This document shows, piece after piece, positions 20,621 through 51,332 of a stretch of DNA of 54,049 nt. The translations under genes and the position numbers were made by a program. The number at the start of each line of letters is the position of its first letter. The first letter of the stretch is position 1. Location of the stretch: positions 1 through 54,049 of the IMG/VR virus record IMGVR_UViG_3300048011_000299, one strand, 5' to 3'. The notes below the pieces were generated by a model. It ran no database searches. It had not been told where the DNA came from and worked only from the letters and a program-made list of their open reading frames with translations. The stretch is from a virus.

Positions 20621-22284
20621 TATCTTCTCCCTGCAACGGAATATTCAAATACGAGACCTTGAATGGAATATGGGTCAAATTGACCAATAGACACAAACTC
20701 GGCGCGGGTTGAAAATCCTGACCCTTGAATGTTGGTAGACATAACCGGCTTAGAGTTGCCGCCATACAGTACGCTGGATGCCCCGTAATCTATATTACGA
20801 CCAGCATATTCCACAGGACCGCCTAAACTACTTTGGGAGTAACCGGCAGGTTGGGGATTGTTGTAATCTCCCCAATCAAAACGGAGTCCAAGATTTAAAG
20901 TGAATGGGCCTTCCGCACGTACAAAAGTATTGATCTGTCGCATTATTTTACGCAAATCAGTATCGCCAAAGTCTAAATATGGCGTGGAATATACTGCTAA
21001 AATATCATCACCAGAAAAGTTATTACCGACTTCCTGTTGATATACTTTGCCGTCAAAATCCCCATGCAATACAACTTCAGAAGACCCCACATAATCTGAA
21101 GTGGTTACATGCGCCCTGATCCCTACTAGCTCCCCAAAGTTCCATTGGATAGCGCCATTGGTTTCAGTTAGACCTCCTATTAATCCGTAGGAGTCTATCT
21201 TAGCTATAGAAGAGCCACCTATGAAGTACCTTACCTGAGACTTAGAGCGTATTACAACGCCACACAAAGTATCTAAATTATAGTTGGCTATAACGTCTAC
21301 TAAAGCACCTTGGATGGGGCGAGATACGGACTCAATCTCTACATCACCAATACGAGAAGTACCTGCGACAGGTCTAAAGCCATCAGGCGCTAGAAACATC
21401 AGGTCGCCACCAATTTCCAAAACACTGTCAGCGGCAACACAGCCTACGTTGGCAGTAACTGGAGAAGTGACGAAATTTAAAGTTGAATCGGTTGCAACCT
21501 TAACGATAGCATTTGATCCAAAAACAAATAAATTATCACGAAACGGCTTAATCTGAACTACAGGAAAACCTGCGGATAACTGACCTCCACTTGAGCCGAA
21601 ATCTAAGTAAGCGTCTGTATCTGCCGTATTTACAGGAGCGGAATAGGCTATAGCAGGCTTAGTACCCTTATCTCCAGATAAAAAGAGAGTATGGTTAAAA
21701 AAATCTACTACGCTAGGAGCATTTAGAACATTAGGACCGCCCGGACTAGAAGTGCCGCCAGTATTAGTGTTTACAAGCTCATACCAATTAGTACCATTAA
21801 ACACGATGGCTGGATTTACGCCATCTACAAAGCAGATTGCATCTCCACCACCAAAGTTAAATTGTACGTGGCGTAGTCTATTTACTGAACGCAATCCAGC
21901 CGACATATCGCGGGTAAATCCTGTAGATATAACCTGCCAGCCGGATAAGGGTACATACTTATAGAAGCTATAAGTGTTAGCATTTTTATCTTTACGTGCA
22001 GAAATATAAAACGGATTATTAAACTGAGAGTTCTGATAGATAGCTAATCCCAGTACAGCACCTTCTGCTGTAGATGAAGTGCCGACTTCACCTAGACCCC
22101 CTGAGCCTGCATAACCCAACTCTTTGTAGCCATTTATGCGCCGATAGCCGCCAAATAAAGACGGTTCATAATTAATCAGCCGTGTAGCAGAACCGGGAAG
22201 ATTGTCTGATAAATCTAAATGGTTTTCATTAGAATTTAGACCGCCTCCACATATAACCTTAAAGCTTTCTATCTGGTCAGCCAT
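20620..22284 (-). CDS. Tail nozzle / tail tubular protein B-like (554 aa)
   Basis: A beta-rich protein starting MADQIESFKVICGGGLNSNE and continuing DLSDNLPGSATRLINYEPSL, a pattern I associate with the tail hub/nozzle protein of marine podoviruses. The gene order (adaptor, then this protein, then fibre) is the standard podovirus order. No enzymatic domain seen. It overlaps both neighbours by one base (TAATG-type junctions). Assignment by position and pattern, not by a search. Confidence 0.72.
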   Translation of the reverse strand: MADQIESFKVICGGGLNSNENHLDLSDNLPGSATRLINYEPSLFGGYRRINGYKELGYAGSGGLGEVGTSSTAEGAVLGLAIYQNSQFNNPFYISARKDKNANTYSFYKYVPLSGWQVISTGFTRDMSAGLRSVNRLRHVQFNFGGGDAICFVDGVNPAIVFNGTNWYELVNTNTGGTSSPGGPNVLNAPSVVDFFNHTLFLSGDKGTKPAIAYSAPVNTADTDAYLDFGSSGGQLSAGFPVVQIKPFRDNLFVFGSNAIVKVATDSTLNFVTSPVTANVGCVAADSVLEIGGDLMFLAPDGFRPVAGTSRIGDVEIESVSRPIQGALVDVIANYNLDTLCGVVIRSKSQVRYFIGGSSIAKIDSYGLIGGLTETNGAIQWNFGELVGIRAHVTTSDYVGSSEVVLHGDFDGKVYQQEVGNNFSGDDILAVYSTPYLDFGDTDLRKIMRQINTFVRAEGPFTLNLGLRFDWGDYNNPQPAGYSQSSLGGPVEYAGRNIDYGASSVLYGGNSKPVMSTNIQGSGFSTRAEFVSIGQFDPYSIQGLVFEYSVAGRR

Positions 22285-35193: not shown

Positions 35194-35336
35194 TACTTCT
35201 TCTTTTTCTTCATAGCCATGCCGCCGTAGCTCATAGCTGGCTTCTTCTTCATAGCCATACCGCCCATAGCAAGCTTAGGCATGGTACGGTTCTTTGCTGG
35301 AGGTACGTCTGCCCCACACTTCTTATCTTTCATCAT
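35193..35336 (-). CDS. Met/Lys/Gly-rich small protein (47 aa)
   Basis: The sequence contains two copies of a GGMAMKKK motif (MGGMAMKKKP and YGGMAMKKKKK) and ends in five Lys. It has one Cys near the N-terminus. Too short for most gene finders, but it starts inside the upstream gene and ends exactly at the next ATG, as expected for a coupled gene. Low-complexity proteins of this type occur in other marine podoviruses. Function unknown. Confidence 0.55.
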   Translation of the reverse strand: MMKDKKCGADVPPAKNRTMPKLAMGGMAMKKKPAMSYGGMAMKKKKK

Positions 35337-35580
35337 CAAACTCCTCTTCTAATAACTCTGGTATGAATCTTTTTGGATCAATGGGAACTTCTACTGAACA
35401 GTCTTCTGTTGCGAAGTATCTCCCGTAGCCGTCGAACTCTTGAGCTAAGGGATTATCCTTCAACTCCTTCTCAGAGATCAGGCCTTCTTCCAGTAGTAGT
35501 CTTCTGATGTGATCGAACTTCAGGACTTGGCCTGTTCGTTCTTGGATGGCTGCACGAATATAGTACAGATTAAATGTCAT
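35323..35580 (-). CDS. Hypothetical protein (85 aa)
   Basis: Begins MTFNLYYIRAAIQERTGQVL. The FDHIRRLLLEEGLISEKEL segment resembles a helix-turn-helix half but is not convincing. The C-terminus is acidic (FIPELLEEEFDDER). It has its own upstream candidate promoter (35599-35628), making it the first gene of the next leftward block. Confidence 0.65.
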   Translation of the reverse strand: MTFNLYYIRAAIQERTGQVLKFDHIRRLLLEEGLISEKELKDNPLAQEFDGYGRYFATEDCSVEVPIDPKRFIPELLEEEFDDER

Positions 35581-35598: not shown

Positions 35599-35628
35599 AT
35601 TGTAACATTTTATATAGCCCTTGGTCAA
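35599..35628 (-). promoter_or_regulatory. Candidate promoter for the 35580 gene block
   Basis: Minus strand: TTGACC, 18-bp spacer, TACAAT, ending about 20 bp before the ATG at 35580. It lies just left of the inverted repeat at 35635-35682. Confidence 0.6.
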
Positions 35629-35634
35629 GGGATT

Positions 35635-35682
35635 AATTAATCAGCCTGTTAAGTATTTTTATTGACAACTAGCTGATTAATT
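35635..35682. repeat. Operator-like inverted repeat AATTAATCAG / CTGATTAATT
   Basis: Perfect 10-bp arms at 35635-35644 and 35673-35682. The right arm lies entirely in the spacer of the plus-strand consensus promoter, and the left arm lies next to the minus-strand promoter. A dimeric or looping repressor bound here could control both promoters. Confidence 0.6.
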
Positions 35683-35690
35683 TGTATAAT
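35662..35690 (+). promoter_or_regulatory. Perfect consensus sigma70 promoter with no gene downstream on its strand
   Basis: TTGACA, exactly 17 bp, TATAAT. Transcription would run rightward from about 35697, antisense to the DUF1127-like and endonuclease VII-like genes. Downstream the plus strand has only a 9-codon frame. It may give an antisense or regulatory RNA. Confidence 0.7.
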
Positions 35691-35771
35691 GAATTGTCGG
35701 TTGAGCGGTTTACTATATAGATAGCCTACTCTTCCTAGTAATGGTTGGGGTAGTAGTTTACTCTAAGTAAT

Positions 35772-35957
35772 CTACCCGCCGTAGACCTTGTGGTAGATTT
35801 CTCCCCGACTGATCCCCATATCTTTCAACTGACTGTCTGACAGGTTCTTCAACTGCCAGTAGTCTACCCGCCGTTGCTGCATGTCCTGCATCTTCTTGAC
35901 GATGGCTGCGTCACCTACAAAGGTGTGGACCATCACTGCAAACATCTTTCCAAACAT
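35772..35957 (-). CDS. DUF1127-like small protein (61 aa)
   Basis: The start at ATG 35957 is chosen for an AAGGAG ribosome-binding site seven bases upstream. The C-terminal half, RRVDYWQLKNLSDSQLKDMG followed by ISRGEIYHKV, has the L-x-x-L-x-D-x-x-L-x-D-I/M-G-I-x-R pattern of DUF1127/YjiS proteins, small alphaproteobacterial RNA- or stress-linked proteins. The N-terminus is hydrophobic (MFGKMFAVMVHTFVG). A hairpin (35748-35777) follows its stop. It may have been acquired from a host. Confidence 0.7.
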   Translation of the reverse strand: MFGKMFAVMVHTFVGDAAIVKKMQDMQQRRVDYWQLKNLSDSQLKDMGISRGEIYHKVYGG

Positions 35958-35979
35958 ATCTATCTCCTTAGCTGTATGT

Positions 35980-35993
35980 GGTATCATTATACC
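35980..35993 (-). promoter_or_regulatory. -10 box buried in a GGTAT/ATACC palindrome
   Basis: Minus strand GGTATAATGATACC: perfect 5-bp arms around AATG. The sequence TATAAT (35986-35991) is the -10 box of the DUF1127-like gene 30 bp away. The -35 region is poor, so an activator or a repressor bound to the palindrome may decide activity. Confidence 0.5.
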
Positions 35994-36783: not shown

Positions 36784-36818
36784 AGGTAATCCAAATAAAT
36801 AAATAAAATATGCCGCTT

Positions 36819-36847
36819 AGTATATACTACTTAGCAACACTTTACAA
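36819..36847 (-). promoter_or_regulatory. Promoter at the head of the leftward operon
   Basis: Minus strand: TTGTAA, 17 bp, TATACT. A short perfect palindrome (ACTACT-GA-AGTAGT, about 36868-36881) lies just upstream and may be an operator. It drives the block beginning with the gene ending at 36783. Confidence 0.65.
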
Positions 36848-37557
36848 GTGCCTTTGCTAATTTGCTAACTACTGAAGTAGTACGTTGACAGATTATTTGC
36901 TGGAGTAATCGGCTGGGGGCGATTTACAGTTGCTATTTTCTAAAAATAGGTGGGAGTTGTATACGGACCCAGTACCGGGGGGGGTGGCACATGCAGGGTC
37001 GGCTGCGCTGGCCGTCGATCTAGAGTCATTTTATTAAGTCATTGATTTTATTAAATAAAATATAAACCGGTGACTGAATAGTTCATAGGCTGATAGTGAT
37101 TTGTGTAATAAAATCATGCGCTTGGAATAAATCGCTCATAAAAATAATGGCAGATTGTGCAAACGGCCAAAAAAATACTGCTTTCCAGCCGGTTTTTTCT
37201 GAGCAGCCAGCCAGCAGCCAGTGCATGACGGGTGCATATGCTGCGAGCGCGGGTTGTGCTGGTGCATCCTCAGCCCTCTTCCTGCCATCCCTCAGTCACC
37301 GGCTCGAACCGCCAGCCTGAGCAGCCGACATCAGCCCATGACCCCATGATATGCTGCCACTTGCTTTCGGCTCTGTGCGGCGTTCTCTGGGCCTGTGGCA
37401 GGGTGTTAACCCCCAAATCTATATAGCCCTCACGCTCGATATAAGCGCCACTGAATAGGGGTAATTGTTTTGGGTATAATTATGCCATCTAACTGTTTGG
37501 CTACTGTGTGAGGCTTACAGCGCCTCTGAGAGCATACTACATTCTGGTCTTCGGACA
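36848..37557. other. Long non-coding region between the two leftward operons
   Basis: About 700 bp with no convincing gene on either strand; the plus-strand frames here lack ribosome-binding sites and show Cys/Ser/Pro-rich random-like sequence. It contains a run of eight G (36977-36984), an AT-rich block (37030-37075), the GC-rich short-repeat stretch CAGCCAGCCAGCAGCCAG (about 37203-37220), a GTTAAC site (37405-37410) and a plus-strand TATAAT near 37475. Candidate replication origin, packaging site or control region; not decided. Confidence 0.5.
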
Positions 37558-37582
37558 CAAAAAAACCGGCTCGAAAGCCGGT
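37558..37582 (-). terminator. Terminator of the plasmid-like leftward cassette
   Basis: Minus strand: ACCGGCT pairs perfectly with AGCCGGT around a TTCG tetraloop, followed by a run of seven T. It lies about 30 bp beyond the stop of the last cassette gene. Confidence 0.85.
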
Positions 37583-37609
37583 TGTTCTGGTTTGTTTGTT
37601 TGGGCTGAT

Positions 37610-39514: not shown

Positions 39515-39688
39515 TCAGCCGGTGGCTTTTTCCAGCCGGTCTATTGATCGGTTTAGCTTGGCTGCTTTTCTTTGCAGAGCCAGCAACCGGCGGCGTTCAG
39601 TTCGACGGCTGCGGGTAGGGGTGGTGGCTGCATATGAAAACTGGCCGGTCATAAAATCAGATGGCTTATGTTTGAAGCTTTTTCCCAT
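39515..39688 (-). CDS. Small basic protein (57 aa)
   Basis: Begins MGKSFKHKPSDFMTGQFSYA and has a very basic helix (RSRRTERRRLLALQRKAAKL). Its ATG overlaps the stop of the DUF932 gene (TAATG), and it ends 24 bp before the terminator. Arg/Lys-rich helix of nucleic-acid-binding type; function unknown. Confidence 0.6.
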   Translation of the reverse strand: MGKSFKHKPSDFMTGQFSYAATTPTRSRRTERRRLLALQRKAAKLNRSIDRLEKATG

Positions 39689-40575
39689 TATGCTGCCTCC
39701 AGAAAACGGTTATCTGAAATCCACTTATTAACCTCTAATTCACGCTGCATCATATTGGCTGCGCGGTTTTGATTAGCGGCATCAGTCTGGCGCAATGCAA
39801 ACCCGTTTCGATCATCCGCATAAGTGGCATAATTGGTCCAAGCAGATACCAGAGCGAATTTGTTTTTACCTCTGATTGCGGCCTCTGATTTATACAGCGA
39901 AAACATTTTGTCTGCTTTGTTTTCGACTTGCCGCTTGCTGTCGGGGTTGGGCTTTGGAGCCATCATCGAATTGAGCAGCGCCTTCACCGTGCCATCGGTC
40001 AGGCTGGTTTGGGCAAATACTTTCAGCCGTGCGCTGTCAGCATAAAAATCATTCTTCGCTGTCCGAAGCTGCTTGATAAAACCTTCCATTGAGAACTGGC
40101 TGCTATTTCTGCGGCGCACCTTCGAGTGTTCTCCCGATACCATCCCATTTAAACAGAATGCATCTATCGCGCCGAATAGGGTGGTGTTCGATCCAGAGCC
40201 GCCGTCGATAGAGTGCAAGGCAATGATGCGCTGCTTGATGGTTGTCTGGTGTTCGTCGGTTTCAATCTGTGTTGCGATAGATGGAAACTGGATATCCATC
40301 ATTCCAAAAGCACCATTTCTGCCAGACTGAAATCTAAGCTGCGCGCCCTCAGTGTCGGCTGGGTCCATGTTCTCGGTCACCTGTTGCCATACACCCTCGA
40401 AGAAACTGCGGTGGCTGGCGCATGAGAACGTGTCTCCCACATGCCCCAGCACCTTGCCGGTGTTTCCATCGATCACAAATTTGTGCCGGTCCTGTCGGCT
40501 TGCTTCGAACACCGGATCGAAATCCAGATCAGTTGGCAGTTCGAGGTCTTGGCTGAAGTTTTGAAAATCTAACAT
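39688..40575 (-). CDS. DUF932-type phage/plasmid protein (295 aa)
   Basis: Resembles the DUF932 / phage-plasmid-like family (TIGR03299 type). Visible are a conserved N-terminal part (DPVFEASRQDRHKFVIDGNT), then FSCASHRSFFEGVWQQVTEN, the central LHSIDGGSGSNTTLFGAIDA and the Cys/Met-containing FCLNGMVSGEHSKVRRRNSS. The family is widespread on plasmids and prophages; no activity is established. ATG 40575 is preferred because of a GAGAG site; ATG 40590 is the alternative. It is the largest gene of the cassette. Confidence 0.8.
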   Translation of the reverse strand: MLDFQNFSQDLELPTDLDFDPVFEASRQDRHKFVIDGNTGKVLGHVGDTFSCASHRSFFEGVWQQVTENMDPADTEGAQLRFQSGRNGAFGMMDIQFPSIATQIETDEHQTTIKQRIIALHSIDGGSGSNTTLFGAIDAFCLNGMVSGEHSKVRRRNSSQFSMEGFIKQLRTAKNDFYADSARLKVFAQTSLTDGTVKALLNSMMAPKPNPDSKRQVENKADKMFSLYKSEAAIRGKNKFALVSAWTNYATYADDRNGFALRQTDAANQNRAANMMQRELEVNKWISDNRFLEAA

Positions 40576-40651
40576 ATTTCTCTCTTTCATTGATTGGTTG
40601 GTTTGTTCGTTGGCTTGGCAGCCCCAGAGATTGGAGCCGCCGGTTTTTTAA

Positions 40652-43472: not shown

Positions 43473-43759
43473 TGGCTAAAGAAGAAGTATTCAGCAAGTT
43501 TATATGGTCTATTGGTGGTTTGACTGAGGTTATTGGTCAAATGCACTGTAGCACCACCAATGAAGCTACGGCGCTGCACTGGCACGACGATGAGAATTAC
43601 TGGTTCACGTTAGAAATGCGGGAAGACGGTGTCTACGCAGAGATAGATGACAGTACGGATGCAAAGACTATGTACGCTGCTATCGGTTACTGCCAGTATC
43701 ATGGCATCTCCTACAGTCTTATTTGGCAAGACTACAGAAAGGAGAAGTCTAATGGCTAA
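43472..43759 (+). CDS. Hypothetical protein (95 aa)
   Basis: MAKEEVFSKFIWSIGGLTEV, then HWHDDENYWFTLEMREDGVY and DDSTDAKTMYAAIGYCQYHG. Trp/Tyr/His-rich and compact; no family recognised. It overlaps the integrase start by 8 bp, so integrase translation may be coupled to it. Confidence 0.62.
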   Translation: MAKEEVFSKFIWSIGGLTEVIGQMHCSTTNEATALHWHDDENYWFTLEMREDGVYAEIDDSTDAKTMYAAIGYCQYHGISYSLIWQDYRKEKSNG

Positions 43760-44888
43760 AGCTCCTTACGTGCGGCCGCGAGAGGTAGGTAATGGTTGGG
43801 TGTACGACATCAGGCCTACCGCTGAAGTTCTAGAGGCTTTTCCGCATCTGAATGTTAAACCACGGGAGAACTACACCTGTATAAGAGATGCCAATGCCCG
43901 TGGCTATGAAATCAAGCGTCTGTTCGAGGCTCACAAAGCCGGTGAAGAGGTAGAGGTCAGGGCAGACAGCCGCTCTGTCGCTGCGCTGGTGGACTACTAC
44001 AAAGACAGCATGGCTTATACAAACATCAAGGCCGCTTCTACCAAGCGGTCCTACGATGGTCATCTCAGTCATGTGCTGCGTGTACACATAGGCGGCAAAC
44101 AGTTTAGCAAGATGTTTGTGTCACAGGTTGACTACGAATACGCACAAAGATTGTGGCTACACATACAGTCTGACGTATCTACACACAAAGCAAACCACAC
44201 ATTCAAGGTGCTGAAGCTGGTCTGGAACGAGGGTTTACGTGCGGGGAAAGTTAAATCTAACCCGTTCTCCTTAGTCAGGATACCCAAGCTACCGGACAGG
44301 CAGGTTATGTGGACCGTCGATCAGATCAAGGGAATGGTGAAGTACTGTGATGAGCAGGGCTATCCAAGCATGGGTACTATGATCGTCATGTGTTATGAGT
44401 TCTGCCAGCGTCCGGTGGATGTACGCACTATGAAGTGGTCTAACATAGATGGGCGTACTGGGGTGTCGAATTTCATCCAGCAAAAGACCGGCAAGCAGAT
44501 GTCCATAAAGGTAACCAACGCCGTTCAGGACAGGTTACATCTACATCAGCACCGTAACTCAGACGATTACATCTTCGCATACGAAAATACTGGGCGTCCA
44601 TACACGCAGGATCGCTGTAATAAGTTCTTTCGTAAGCTGGCTGACGGTTACGGGCTACCTGAAGTGCCTATACACGGTCAGTTCAATAAAGATGGCAGTC
44701 AGATGTATTCTACCATCTGGTTAGCTGACTTACGACGAACTGGGATAACCCATGCCAGTCAGTCTGGCTGCTCAGACAGAGAGCTAATGGCTCTATCAGG
44801 CCACAAGAACCCTCAGATGCTGGTTGTATACGCAGTAGAGGGCGAGATTGAATCTACCAACGCTAATATAAAACGAGGACTATTATAA
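43752..44888 (+). CDS. int: Tyrosine-family site-specific integrase
   Basis: A 378-aa integrase. Catalytic residues seen: R220 (CQRPVDV), K245 (QQKTGK), R328/R329 in ADLRRTGIT, H351 (LSGHKNP) and Y360 (VVYAVE). The usual His before L-R is replaced (ADLR), as in several phage integrases. The N-terminal 180 residues comprise an arm-binding part and a core-binding SAM-like domain. The start is ATG 43752, overlapping the upstream gene. It would recombine the attP at 46222-46264 with a host tRNA gene. No excisionase was identified. Confidence 0.93.
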   Translation: MAKAPYVRPREVGNGWVYDIRPTAEVLEAFPHLNVKPRENYTCIRDANARGYEIKRLFEAHKAGEEVEVRADSRSVAALVDYYKDSMAYTNIKAASTKRSYDGHLSHVLRVHIGGKQFSKMFVSQVDYEYAQRLWLHIQSDVSTHKANHTFKVLKLVWNEGLRAGKVKSNPFSLVRIPKLPDRQVMWTVDQIKGMVKYCDEQGYPSMGTMIVMCYEFCQRPVDVRTMKWSNIDGRTGVSNFIQQKTGKQMSIKVTNAVQDRLHLHQHRNSDDYIFAYENTGRPYTQDRCNKFFRKLADGYGLPEVPIHGQFNKDGSQMYSTIWLADLRRTGITHASQSGCSDRELMALSGHKNPQMLVVYAVEGEIESTNANIKRGLL

Positions 44889-46442: not shown

Positions 46443-47210
46443 ATGACCTACCTCGAACAACTAGAAGTCATAAAGGCTATCCCTATACGGGAAGGAGACA
46501 CTAAAGTAATCCAGTGTCCTTTCTGTGGTGGCTTAAAGAAGCTGTCTGTTTCTAAAGTAGACGGCCAACTGAAGTGGTATTGCTTTAGAGCAAGCTGTAA
46601 TGGCAAAGGCATATACCAAGGCAAGAGAAGTCTACAGGCAGCTAAGAATTATCTAGCAGATGCTGTACAGCAAAAGACTAGAGAGCCGAAGCCTATTCCT
46701 TCGATCACTACTCCAGCCCGTAATCACCAGCCAGCACTCGACTATCTAGATCAGAACAATAGCCTAGAGGCTTACGAAGCTGGATACATAGATGTTCGCT
46801 ATGCACCCGCAGAGGATAGAGTACTATTCTGCACAGACACAGGCGCTGTAGGTAGATCACTAAAGAAGTATGGACCTAAGTGGCTTTCTTACGGAGTGCT
46901 GGAAGAGGGCATACACGTAGGAAATGGATCAACAGCCGTGCTTGTAGAGGATACACCATCAGCCTGTTCTGTAAGCAGAGTAGACGGCTTAGTAGGCGTT
47001 GCTTTGCTGGGAACTCGCGTAAGTAGCTGTCTTAAAAAGTCTCTGAACAAATACGATGCTTGCTATTTGGTCCTTGACAAGGATGCTTCGTCTAAGTCTA
47101 TAAAGATAGGTAGGAGTATAGATAAAAGCTTACTGATTAGGTTTACTTCTGAAGATTTAAAGAACCTATCAGTTAACCAGCTTGTAGAGGTGTTAAGTAA
47201 TGAATTGTAA
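46443..47210 (+). CDS. DNA primase (zinc finger plus TOPRIM-like domain, 255 aa)
   Basis: N-terminal zinc finger with Cys at 25, 28, 47 and 52 (CPFCGG ... WYCFRASC), the type that reads the DNA template. Residues about 100-220 carry the TOPRIM pattern: VLVEDTPSACS (glutamate region) and YLVLDKDASSKS (D-x-D-like). Unlike T7 gp4 it has no helicase domain; the helicase is a separate gene 600 bp away. The short size (255 aa) fits a primase-only protein. Confidence 0.82.
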   Translation: MTYLEQLEVIKAIPIREGDTKVIQCPFCGGLKKLSVSKVDGQLKWYCFRASCNGKGIYQGKRSLQAAKNYLADAVQQKTREPKPIPSITTPARNHQPALDYLDQNNSLEAYEAGYIDVRYAPAEDRVLFCTDTGAVGRSLKKYGPKWLSYGVLEEGIHVGNGSTAVLVEDTPSACSVSRVDGLVGVALLGTRVSSCLKKSLNKYDACYLVLDKDASSKSIKIGRSIDKSLLIRFTSEDLKNLSVNQLVEVLSNEL

Positions 47211-47825: not shown

Positions 47826-49040
47826 ATGGACCAATCATTACTTAAAAGCTGCCTCAGTAATTCGTTCTATTCTGAAAACAAGGCAAAGCTAAGACCCTCA
47901 CTTTTTGATGACACACTAAAAGAAGTCTACACCACCATCGTATCAATGCATGATACATTTGATAAAGACCTCACCCCGCTAGAACTATTTAGTTACTGGA
48001 AGGCCAACAACCCCACTAGTACCGGTGCGTGGACAGCCGACATTCAAGACTTAATCAATTCAGTATCCAATGCCGAAGAGATAGATGATGTAGTAGCTGT
48101 CGATGTAATTGAAAACCTATGGCGTCAGCACATAGGCCTCGACATAGCCACCCTTGGCATAAAAATGTCTGAGGGCGATGCCTCTGCAATGGACCTACTA
48201 AAGTCTCTTCTAGACCGTGTCTCTGAAGGTTACATGCCTGATGACTTTGCTAACGAAGTAACTGATGACATCGATGAACTACTGGCCGTTGTCAGTAATG
48301 ATAACCGCTTCAAGTTCAACATCGACACACTCTCTAGAGAGGTCTACGGAATTGGTAGAGGCGAGTTTGGTGTCATAGCTGCCTACTCAAATGTGGGTAA
48401 GACTGCGTTTGCTATTAGTCTGTGTGCTGCACCGGCAGGTTTCTGCGCCCAAGGTGCTAGAGTAGGTTACATAGCCAACGAAGAGATTGGTAAGCGTACC
48501 AAGTTACGTGCGGTACAAGCGTATACCGGCATGACCAAAGATGAGATTGCTTTTGACTCTCGCGGAGCCGCTGCCCGTTATGCAGGTATTAAAGAGAGGC
48601 TGACCTTTGTCGATGCTCAAGGCTGGGATATCCAGATGCTTGAGGCTTACCTAAATAAGAAGAAGTTCGATGTGGTCATCGTCGATATGGCCGACAAGAT
48701 TGCACTCACTCAGCAATTTAACTCTGGGCATGAACGCCTGAGAGAACTCTACTACCGTCTACGTGAGGCCGCTAAGAAGTTTGACTGCGCCATACTAGGG
48801 CTATCACAAGCATCCGCTGAAGCTGAAGGCAAGACCCGTATTACTATGTCTATGATGGAAGGCAGTAAGCTGGGCAAGGCGGCTGAGAGTGATGTCATGC
48901 TTGGCATAGGCCGAATGAATGATCCTGATAATCCTGATGACCCTAGTCGCTGGATCACCGTGATGAAGAATAAGATCAGTGGCTGGCACGGCACAGTTCT
49001 CTGTAACCTGAACTCACAGACCTCTCGCTATGAAGTGTGA
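47826..49040 (+). CDS. DnaB-type replicative helicase (404 aa)
   Basis: RecA-fold hexameric helicase. Walker A is AAYSNVGKT (about residues 185-193), Walker B is VVIVDMADK (about 285), and further conserved parts include SQASAEAEGK and the C-terminal GIGRMNDPDNP. The first 130 residues look like the helical N-domain (EVYTTIVSMHDTFDKDLTPL). It is not fused to a primase. The start ATG 47826 directly follows an AAGAGAG site. It is the first gene of its own transcription unit. Confidence 0.88.
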   Translation: MDQSLLKSCLSNSFYSENKAKLRPSLFDDTLKEVYTTIVSMHDTFDKDLTPLELFSYWKANNPTSTGAWTADIQDLINSVSNAEEIDDVVAVDVIENLWRQHIGLDIATLGIKMSEGDASAMDLLKSLLDRVSEGYMPDDFANEVTDDIDELLAVVSNDNRFKFNIDTLSREVYGIGRGEFGVIAAYSNVGKTAFAISLCAAPAGFCAQGARVGYIANEEIGKRTKLRAVQAYTGMTKDEIAFDSRGAAARYAGIKERLTFVDAQGWDIQMLEAYLNKKKFDVVIVDMADKIALTQQFNSGHERLRELYYRLREAAKKFDCAILGLSQASAEAEGKTRITMSMMEGSKLGKAAESDVMLGIGRMNDPDNPDDPSRWITVMKNKISGWHGTVLCNLNSQTSRYEV

Positions 49041-49176
49041 TGATCTGCCGCCGCACCTTGCGCTGCTTCTGGAAGAAGTTGGCGTAATTAACCCCAAACC
49101 TGAGCCGCAGCCTGTAGTGCGTGACCTCTCATTTAAACGTCCCGAGTTGGATGAGAATGGGGAGCCACCGTGGTGA
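49030..49176 (+). CDS. Hypothetical protein (48 aa)
   Basis: MKCDDLPPHLALLLEEVGVI then NPKPEPQPVVRDLSFKRPEL; Pro-rich. Overlaps the helicase end by 11 bp and the polymerase start by 7 bp. Supported by continuous coding and by the GGGGAG site for the polymerase inside it; unrecognised. Confidence 0.55.
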   Translation: MKCDDLPPHLALLLEEVGVINPKPEPQPVVRDLSFKRPELDENGEPPW

Positions 49177-51332
49177 AATGGCTTGTATTGGATTTAGAGA
49201 CAACGGTTCAGCGAATAGATGGCCGAATAGATAACAGCCCTAAAAACCCTGACAACAGGTGTGTGTCTGCTCACTACGGCTGGCTTGGGTTGGAGACTGT
49301 AGATGAGGTTCACACAGACCTGTGGCATCACAAAGAACTACACTCTCCTGATGGGATAGACCGCCTGAAGCAGCACCTCGCTGAAGCAGACGGCATGATA
49401 TGCCACAACGTGAAGTTCGATGCTGAGTGGCTTCTGGAGATGGGCTTTGAATTGCCGCCTATCGTCAGAGACACGATGATAACAGAGTACCTGTTAGCCA
49501 AAGGACAGCGTAGGCTGCTTAGTCTGAAGGAGAGCGCTCTACGGCGTAAGACTGAGAGCTTAAAGAAGTCTGACCTAGTCGATGAGCTATTTAAAGGCGG
49601 CACATGCTTTTCTGAGATGCCGTTGGATGTAGTAGTCGAGTATGCAGAGGCTGACGTTAAGGCCTGTGGTGAGTTGTATATAGCCCAGCAAGACATCTTA
49701 GCCCGTGAGCATAATCTCAGCCTGAAGAAGGTCATTCCCTTTATGAATGAGATGCTGTTGTTTCTCTGCGAGATAGAGATGAACGGGGTCAAGATCGATA
49801 GGGATGCTCTGGCAGAGGTTGAGGCACAGTTTACCGAAGAGAAGGCCGCTCTAGAGATAGACCTGAAGCGTATTGTCGAACAGGTGATGGGTGACACGCC
49901 TATTAATCTAAATTCTGGTGATGATATGACCAGAGTGATCTACTCGCGGGAAGTCATCGACAAGGCCATACACAAGCAGACGTTTAATATAGGAACCAAT
50001 GAAGCCGGTAAGTCACTAAGACCACCTTTTGAGTTCATCAAGTATCCTAATAAGTTTGTGGACGCAGTACGGACCACAACCAGAGTTGTTATGAAGCAGT
50101 CTGCCTCGCAGTGTCCTGACTGTGGCGGCTCCGGTACTATCCAGAAGTACAAGGTCAAAACTAAGACTAAGTTAGGTAAGAAGTATCGTGTGCAGGGTGA
50201 GCCTTATAAGAATAGGTCACGGTGTGCTGTCTGTAATGGCGTAGGAGCGATATACACCTCGACAGGCGTAGTTGCTGGCCTAAAGATGGCTCCTAGTACA
50301 GCCTACGATGCCAGCATCGGCGGGTTTAAGTCTGACAAGGTTACTATACAGCGTCTGATTGAACAGGCAGATCGCAAGGATAATTCTACAGCCGTAGAGT
50401 TCCTGACTAAGCTGTCACGACTAAGTGCGGTCTCTGTTTATCTGGATAGCTTTGTGGCTGGTATTAAGAGGGGTACTCGCGCAAGCGGGTTTCTACATGC
50501 CAACTTCAATCAGTGCATTGCTGCTACGGGTAGACTGTCGAGTGGCGGCGGTATGTCATTGAACTTACAGAACCAGCCTAAGAGAGGTTTTCCTGTTCGT
50601 AAGTGCTTTGTCAGTCGGTTCCCAAACGGTTTACTTTTAGAGTCGGACTACTCAGCCCTTGAATTTCGTACCGCGTGTGAGTTGTCGAGAGACAGTCAAG
50701 GCTTGGCAGACGTACTAGAAGGGAAGGACATACACAGGCAGACTGCAAGTATCTGTCTACAGAAGCCGCCTAACGAAGTCAGCAAGGATGAGCGTCAGGG
50801 CCATAAGTGGGCCAGCTTCCAGCCACTTTTTGGCGGCACTGGGGCCGGTCAGCCTGATCATATAAAGGCATACTTCAGCCGTTTCTATGAGATATACGAG
50901 GGTATATACGGCTGGCATCAGTCACTAATGAATGGCACCTTAAAAGATGGCACAGTAACCACACCTAGTGGCCGTCAGTATTTCTGGCCGAATGTCACTA
51001 GAACCAAAGCAGACAGAGTATCAAATGCCACTCAGATACTGAATTATCCAGTCCAAGGCTTCAGCGCAGACTTAGTTCAATTAGCCTGTATAAGAGCATT
51101 TAGACTGTTTAAGGAGAGAAAACTACAATCAAAACTGATACTTACGGTACACGACAGTTTAGTGTGCGATACACATCCTGATGAGGTAGATCAGGTCAGA
51201 GAAGTTCTTACAGAGGCCATGACTAAGGTCAGCGAAGAGTCAAAAGAGCGGTTTGGCTACTCCCTTGTTGTGCCGCTCGACATAGAAATAAGTCGCGGTA
51301 AAAACTGGCTAGATCAGGAAGAATATGTTTGA
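49170..51332 (+). CDS. Family A DNA polymerase with 3'-5' exonuclease and DnaJ-type zinc finger
   Basis: A 720-aa replicative polymerase. Exonuclease motif I is LVLDLETT (D8, E10), motif II-like CHNVKFDAEW, motif III YAEADVKAC (about 160). Two CxxCxGxG-type knuckles (CPDCGGSG 315-322, CAVCNGVG 352-359) form an inserted zinc finger like half of DnaJ. Polymerase motif A is DYSALEFR (D493). The O helix is R542...K546...F550...F554, so the Pol I site 762 is Phe and Y766 is Phe. Motif C is TVHDSLV (D662). GTG 49170, or GTG 49173 with the GTGA overlap, is the start. Confidence 0.93.
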   Translation: MVKWLVLDLETTVQRIDGRIDNSPKNPDNRCVSAHYGWLGLETVDEVHTDLWHHKELHSPDGIDRLKQHLAEADGMICHNVKFDAEWLLEMGFELPPIVRDTMITEYLLAKGQRRLLSLKESALRRKTESLKKSDLVDELFKGGTCFSEMPLDVVVEYAEADVKACGELYIAQQDILAREHNLSLKKVIPFMNEMLLFLCEIEMNGVKIDRDALAEVEAQFTEEKAALEIDLKRIVEQVMGDTPINLNSGDDMTRVIYSREVIDKAIHKQTFNIGTNEAGKSLRPPFEFIKYPNKFVDAVRTTTRVVMKQSASQCPDCGGSGTIQKYKVKTKTKLGKKYRVQGEPYKNRSRCAVCNGVGAIYTSTGVVAGLKMAPSTAYDASIGGFKSDKVTIQRLIEQADRKDNSTAVEFLTKLSRLSAVSVYLDSFVAGIKRGTRASGFLHANFNQCIAATGRLSSGGGMSLNLQNQPKRGFPVRKCFVSRFPNGLLLESDYSALEFRTACELSRDSQGLADVLEGKDIHRQTASICLQKPPNEVSKDERQGHKWASFQPLFGGTGAGQPDHIKAYFSRFYEIYEGIYGWHQSLMNGTLKDGTVTTPSGRQYFWPNVTRTKADRVSNATQILNYPVQGFSADLVQLACIRAFRLFKERKLQSKLILTVHDSLVCDTHPDEVDQVREVLTEAMTKVSEESKERFGYSLVVPLDIEISRGKNWLDQEEYV

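What the first reader, a model, noticed from the sequence alone, without database searches (positions are those of the whole stretch)
35635..35982. Perfect consensus promoter with an operator in its spacer drives RNA antisense to a DUF1127-like gene
TTGACA-17-TATAAT on the plus strand (35662-35690) is the strongest promoter in the window, yet rightward of it there is only antisense sequence over the DUF1127-like and endonuclease VII-like genes. A 10-bp perfect inverted repeat has one arm inside the promoter spacer and the other next to the opposing minus-strand promoter. This looks like a repressor-controlled regulatory RNA or lysis/lysogeny switch element.
Basis: partly seen in the sequence, partly recalled or inferred. 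Interest (0 to 1): 0.7.

Follow-up and report, generated by a model that had tools for sequence, protein, structure and literature searches.

The report
Conserved promoter for a roseophage small RNA
A perfect bacterial-type promoter in a marine Roseobacter phage is kept, together with the first bases of its transcript, at the same place in the relatives examined, where it most likely makes a small non-coding RNA of unknown target rather than driving a lysogeny switch.

Summary
The promoter is real: TTGACA-17-TATAAT at 35662-35690 (+) is the only 12/12 site in 54 kb, with none in 100 shuffles. The window is an HMO-2011-type roseophage close to Roseobacter phage CRP-738. The 21-mer TATAATGAATTGTCGSTTGAG (-10 plus predicted first transcribed bases) is exact in 52 IMG/VR contigs. 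Sampling by the neighbouring gene instead of the motif gave 44 non-redundant relatives; 43 have a rightward promoter-like site there (weaker in CRP-235, CRP-3, CRP-212), usually followed by TTGT...GG..TACTATA. The transcript body fills the gap before the convergent gene. In about a third of relatives its 5' end pairs with a downstream segment, with compensatory changes; in CRP-3 it meets an intrinsic terminator. The window's own copy shows no significant fold. The promoter and 5' box persist in six relatives without an adjacent DUF1127 gene, so it is not a dedicated DUF1127 antisense RNA. Best reading: an undescribed phage small-RNA family, sigma70-driven, target and 3' end unknown. Transcription itself is inferred.

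The parts
35662..35690 (+). sigma70 consensus promoter TTGACA-17-TATAAT
   Evidence: conserved at the syntenic position in relatives
35685..35705 (+). conserved block TATAATGAATTGTCGGTTGAG (-10, discriminator, predicted first transcribed bases)
   Evidence: exact (with G or C at base 16) in 52 viral contigs and in CRP-738
35696..35787 (+). putative small RNA; start predicted at about 35696, 3' end unknown (35787 is the last base of a possible pairing partner)
   Evidence: position of the promoter and comparative sequence; start and end are inferred, and the window copy does not fold better than shuffles
35711..35717 (+). TACTATA box, conserved in most types of the element
35635..35645 (.). left arm of the 11-bp inverted repeat
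   Evidence: conserved only in the window's close relatives
35672..35682 (.). right arm of the 11-bp inverted repeat, inside the promoter spacer
   Evidence: conserved only in the window's close relatives
35599..35628 (-). divergent leftward promoter TTGACC-18-TACAAT
   Evidence: its elements are visible in CRP-738 and other relatives
35323..35580 (-). 85-aa gene of unknown function, used as the synteny anchor
   Evidence: no Pfam or PHROG family
35772..35987 (-). DUF1127 protein, 71 aa, convergent gene
   Evidence: PF06568
36036..36485 (-). endonuclease VII-like gene
   Evidence: PF02945, phrog_2633
37564..37583 (.). terminator-like hairpin, the first rightward one found after the promoter in the window; strong on the minus strand

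Best explanation
The site is the promoter of a phage-encoded small non-coding RNA. Host sigma70 RNA polymerase most likely starts at about G35696 and reads 5'-GUCGGUUGAGCGGUUUACUAUAUAG... rightward. The functional part is probably the conserved 5' box on a fast-evolving body of about 40-160 nt, which in many lineages can fold back so that a downstream segment pairs with the 5' box. The 3' end lies at or near the convergent gene (DUF1127 in the window), by a terminator (seen in CRP-3) or by processing. The RNA probably acts away from its own locus, by pairing with phage or host mRNA or by binding a protein through the 5' box. Shown from sequence: the promoter, its synteny, conservation of promoter plus 5' bases, compensatory pairing in a subset of relatives. 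Inferred: transcription, RNA ends, mode of action, target.
For: Only consensus promoter in the window, none in 100 shuffles. The 21-mer covering -10 and predicted 5' end is exact in 52 contigs while spacer and body vary. Sampling on the neighbour gene, not the motif, finds a rightward promoter-like site plus a variant 5' box in 43 of 44 non-redundant regions. Conservation covers transcribed bases, not just the hexamers. Compensatory G-C/C-G at the fifth pair of the closing helix (5 and 4 of 9 sequences); other 5' ends with their own partners in L350, L351, L352, CRP-212, and GUCGGU/GCCGAC at another spacing in L265. An intrinsic terminator follows in CRP-3, where the RNA would be about 100 nt with a fold z of -3.5. 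Retained where the adjacent DUF1127 gene is missing.
Against: No transcript data. The window's own RNA does not fold better than shuffles (z -0.2 to -0.6) and no terminator-like site lies near it. The closing helix is contiguous in only about a third of lineages, and exchanging 5' ends among types is not significant (P=0.29). No convincing target. Not in Rfam. Conservation of the discriminator, upstream of the predicted start, is not explained by RNA function alone.
Confidence: 0.6

Rival explanations
1. Cis-antisense or transcriptional-interference promoter. Rightward polymerase makes a long antisense RNA over DUF1127, endonuclease VII and the next gene, up to the terminator at 37564-37583, and by collision limits leftward read-through into the late genes.
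For: No rightward terminator-like site between the promoter and 37564 in the window; the promoter faces the convergent genes in all relatives.
Against: Selection keeps the first transcribed bases, outside the overlapped gene, exact. The convergent gene is not constant: DUF1127 is absent next door in six lineages and the endonuclease differs in CRP-3, CRP-212 and CRP-235. CRP-3 has a terminator before or at the overlapped gene.
Confidence: 0.2
2. DNA-level control element. The conserved block is mainly a binding site for a phage or host regulator at the start of transcription, and the divergent promoter pair with the inverted repeat forms a switch between leftward late genes and a rightward transcript whose sequence does not matter.
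For: The discriminator bases are conserved as well as the transcribed ones; the TACTATA box is often part of a short palindrome such as CTATATAG; a perfect inverted repeat spans the promoter in the window clade.
Against: The inverted repeat is absent from other lineages; the block and its palindromes are not found as a series of sites in the genome; no regulator was recognised; complementary changes at variable distance point to RNA.
Confidence: 0.12
3. Promoter of a replication or recombination origin, where the transcript primes DNA synthesis or opens the duplex.
For: Strong promoter with conserved downstream DNA, one copy in the window.
Against: No base-composition turning point at this site; cumulative GC skew turns at about 42 kb with gene direction. 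No array of binding sites found nearby.
Confidence: 0.04

Closest known systems
Trans-acting phage small RNAs (for example lambda PreS and VP882 VpdS; reviewed in PMC12197685)
   Same: Small phage RNA from an intergenic region, proposed to act on host or phage mRNA
   Different: No sequence relation shown here, no target known, no expression data, and in the window no terminator; Hfq dependence untested
Phage cis-antisense RNAs (P22 sar, lambda OOP, cyanophage psbA antisense RNA; PMC12197685)
   Same: Strong promoter firing against neighbouring phage genes
   Different: The convergent gene is not constant, and the conserved part of the transcript is its 5' end, outside the overlapped gene
CIN1 locus of alphaproteobacteria: DUF1127 protein CcaF1 with CcsR (cuckoo) sRNAs (PMC10253847)
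   Same: A 71-aa DUF1127 protein next to a putative small RNA, in phages of Rhodobacteraceae
   Different: The RNA here is on the opposite strand with its own promoter, is not co-transcribed with DUF1127, and persists without an adjacent DUF1127 gene

Membership tests
Phage small regulatory RNA | Own promoter in an intergenic region | tested here: met
Phage small regulatory RNA | Discrete transcript with defined ends | not testable with these tools
   No RNA data; an intrinsic terminator is seen in CRP-3, none nearby in the window
Phage small regulatory RNA | Conserved secondary structure | tested here: inconclusive
   Compensatory pair and lineage-specific partners in a subset; not significant across types and not in the window
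Phage small regulatory RNA | Regulated target | tested here: inconclusive
   No convincing phage target; host unknown
Cis-antisense RNA to DUF1127 | Target gene constantly present opposite the RNA | tested here: not met
   DUF1127 absent next door in 6 of 43 lineages that keep the promoter and 5' box
CIN1 locus / cuckoo (CcsR) sRNA | DUF1127 gene adjacent to the sRNA | tested here: met
   37 of 43 lineages; PF06568 in the window
CIN1 locus / cuckoo (CcsR) sRNA | sRNAs co-transcribed with and processed from the DUF1127 transcript | tested here: not met
   The promoter studied drives the opposite strand; a separate sRNA on the DUF1127 strand was not tested
Any curated Rfam family | Score above the gathering threshold | tested here: not met
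   No match in the window; only chance-level hits in the region
Repressor-controlled lysis/lysogeny switch | Conserved operator at the promoter | tested here: not met
   Inverted repeat only in the window clade
Repressor-controlled lysis/lysogeny switch | Repressor gene nearby or under the promoter | tested here: not met
   Pfam scans of flanking and early proteins show an integrase but no repressor; divergent repressors could be missed

The most novel reading that the evidence does not exclude
An undescribed viral RNA family carried by an abundant marine phage group: an invariant 5' box that acts on a host or phage target, masked in many lineages by a fast-changing, co-evolving partner segment, and in most genomes placed next to a DUF1127 RNA-binding protein as a rearranged viral counterpart of the host CcaF1-CcsR system.
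Probability: 0.15. Interest if true: 0.7.

Novelty: new member of a known kind. Interest (0 to 1): 0.45.

Why it matters
HMO-2011-type phages are described as dominant and broadly distributed in the ocean (PMC9038755), and no non-coding RNA for them turned up in the papers searched. A promoter and transcript start that stay exact while flanks and neighbouring genes change mark a function that selection preserves. Cultured relatives with known hosts carry it (CRP-738, with divergent forms in CRP-3, CRP-212 and CRP-235), so one strand-specific RNA experiment could settle whether the RNA exists.

Tried and rejected
Operator/repressor switch: the inverted repeat is not conserved outside the window clade, and half-sites elsewhere are few. 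Dedicated DUF1127 antisense: the element persists without DUF1127 next door. Host-derived or attB-like sequence: the 21-mer occurs in only two of 84,980 species genomes, one a Rhodobacteraceae bin contig with the phage-type context, one an acidobacterial contig without a -35 element, probably chance. tRNA or known RNA: ARAGORN and Rfam negative. mRNA targets in phage start regions: weak best hit at the portal gene, energies barely correlated between window and CRP-738 (r=0.18). Universal closing helix: permutation across types not significant, so not claimed for the window. A broad pattern scan for TTGAC-17-TATAATGAATT returned chance hits in unrelated contigs. Most relaxed 5'-box hits outside the group were chance; one (L265) was a true variant. 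Homologous promoter in CRP-1 and HMO-2011: not recognised. RNA structure in the 800-bp gap at 36784-37609: little apart from its terminator.

Full report
Context. The window is a 54-kb virus record. Its large terminase is 87.6% identical to that of Roseobacter phage CRP-738 and 71-75% to CRP-235, CRP-3 and CRP-212, which places it among the HMO-2011-type phages (PMC9038755). Late genes run leftward and replication genes rightward from about 41.8 kb. An integrase is encoded at 43752-44888. The papers read report integrase genes in part of this group and integration of CRP-3 at a tRNA-Met gene.

Observation. The promoter, the opposing promoter, the inverted repeat and both flanking genes are present as described. 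The promoter is the only 12/12 match in the window and none arose in 100 shuffles. Weaker promoter-like sites in the surrounding 16 kb number 15 against 20.1 expected, so only this exact match stands out.

Conservation. Among 80 terminase-selected viral loci, 24 carry the block in close to its exact form, many of the others being too short to cover the region, and CRP-738 has it too. A scan for the exact 21-mer TATAATGAATTGTCGSTTGAG found 52 viral contigs. Since that scan selects on the motif, I repeated the sampling on the 85-aa neighbour gene (35323-35580) alone: 80 distinct intergenic regions, 44 after removing near-duplicates. In 43 a rightward promoter-like site was found at the same position, with a variant of the 5' box. 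In L012 the script chose a wrong site, and a weaker TTTACA-16-TATAAT is visible by eye. The sites in CRP-235, CRP-3 and CRP-212 are also weaker matches, and choosing the best site in each region favours finding one. The types differ: GAATTGTCGSTTGAG (window type), GAAGTTGTCTTCGGGG, GGAGTTGTCCCTCCC, TAATTGTGGCTAAGAGG, and divergent forms in the three cultured phages. Common to most are TTGAC, TATAAT, TTGT and TACTATA. In 20 representatives of the window type every block position is identical except the S position, while the spacer and the body vary; these were found with up to three mismatches allowed.

What is transcribed. With the -10 ending at 35690, the start is expected near G35696 (inference). 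The body extends to the convergent gene; the distance from predicted start to DUF1127 homology varies from 28 to 164 nt. The block occurs once in the window. In about a third of lineages the first five or six bases pair with a downstream segment. In the window type the fifth base is G or C and its partner C or G; among nine related sequences five have G-C and four C-G at this pair. L350, L351, L352 and CRP-212 have other 5' ends with their own complementary partners, and L265 closes GUCGGU with GCCGAC at +36. I do not claim the helix for every lineage: the window and several other types lack a contiguous one, exchanging 5' ends among types gives P=0.29, and a 14-nt duplex test gives a combined p of 0.013 without correction for relatedness. 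Folding energies over 20 representatives average z=-1.6 on the + strand and -1.4 on the minus strand, which does not settle the strand. The window copy folds no better than shuffles. CRP-3 has a compact fold with an intrinsic terminator (z=-3.5) and CRP-212 a terminator candidate; in the window the first + strand terminator-like site after the promoter is at 37564.

Relation to neighbours. DUF1127 lies to the right in 37 of 43 lineages and was not found there in six: CRP-3, CRP-212, L019, L290, L058 and L069. CRP-3 and CRP-212 have a DUF1127 homologue elsewhere in the late region. In CRP-3, CRP-212 and CRP-235 the endonuclease position is held by different proteins (sequences). A regulator specific to DUF1127 or endonuclease VII would not be expected to survive these changes, which favours action elsewhere. 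DUF1127 proteins and sRNAs are associated in alphaproteobacteria (CIN1 locus, CcaF1-CcsR; PMC10253847). That makes the adjacency suggestive, but the orientation differs and CIN1 membership is not met.

Regulation. The inverted repeat is perfect over 14 tested positions in L008 and near-perfect in L009 and the window, so it may be a real operator in this clade, spanning the -35 of the rightward promoter and lying next to the leftward promoter. It is not seen in other lineages and cannot be the general control of the element. No repressor was recognised.

Targets. Complementarity of the 5' box to the start regions of 42 genes shared with CRP-738 gave no convincing conserved target. Host targets could not be tested because the host is unknown.

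Conclusion. The evidence supports a conserved sigma70 promoter for a non-coding RNA in one branch of the HMO-2011-type roseophages; the neighbour gene was found only in CRP-738, CRP-235, CRP-3 and CRP-212 among 50,697 phage records. A discrete small RNA acting in trans is the best reading (0.6), with antisense/interference (0.2) and a DNA-level control element (0.12) as main rivals. Everything about transcription is inferred from sequence.

Noticed in passing
window 36784-37609; CRP-738 48727-49532 (L003 10728-11533): An intergenic gap of about 800 bp recurs at the same place in CRP-738, CRP-235, CRP-3 and CRP-212 with a similar core (around GTATACGG..., runs of G or C, GGTGGCA). It could hold an origin, packaging site or another non-coding element; RNA folding is unremarkable apart from its terminator.
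   Followed up: partly
window 37469-37594 (+): Sub-threshold Rfam match to STnc50 (38.6 bits, gathering score 55), overlapping the terminator hairpin; probably chance.
   Followed up: no
L013, L036, L046, L064, L068, L080, L085, about 30-60 nt after the predicted start: A module close to CTCTAAGTCACCCTAGTATGGGAGTAG recurs inside the RNA body of otherwise different lineages, as if gained and lost as a unit.
   Followed up: no
CRP-3 46529-46657, CRP-212 48413-48538, CRP-207 48845-49015, CRP-13 49328-49450: DUF1127-like genes occur at other places of the late region in several cultured roseophages, some not named as such in their records.
   Followed up: no
window 22170-22180 (+): A third exact copy of the inverted-repeat arm AATTAATCAGC.
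   Followed up: no
window 39688-40590 (-): A 300-aa DUF932 protein (PF06067, E=3.6e-10) is encoded in the leftward block.
   Followed up: no
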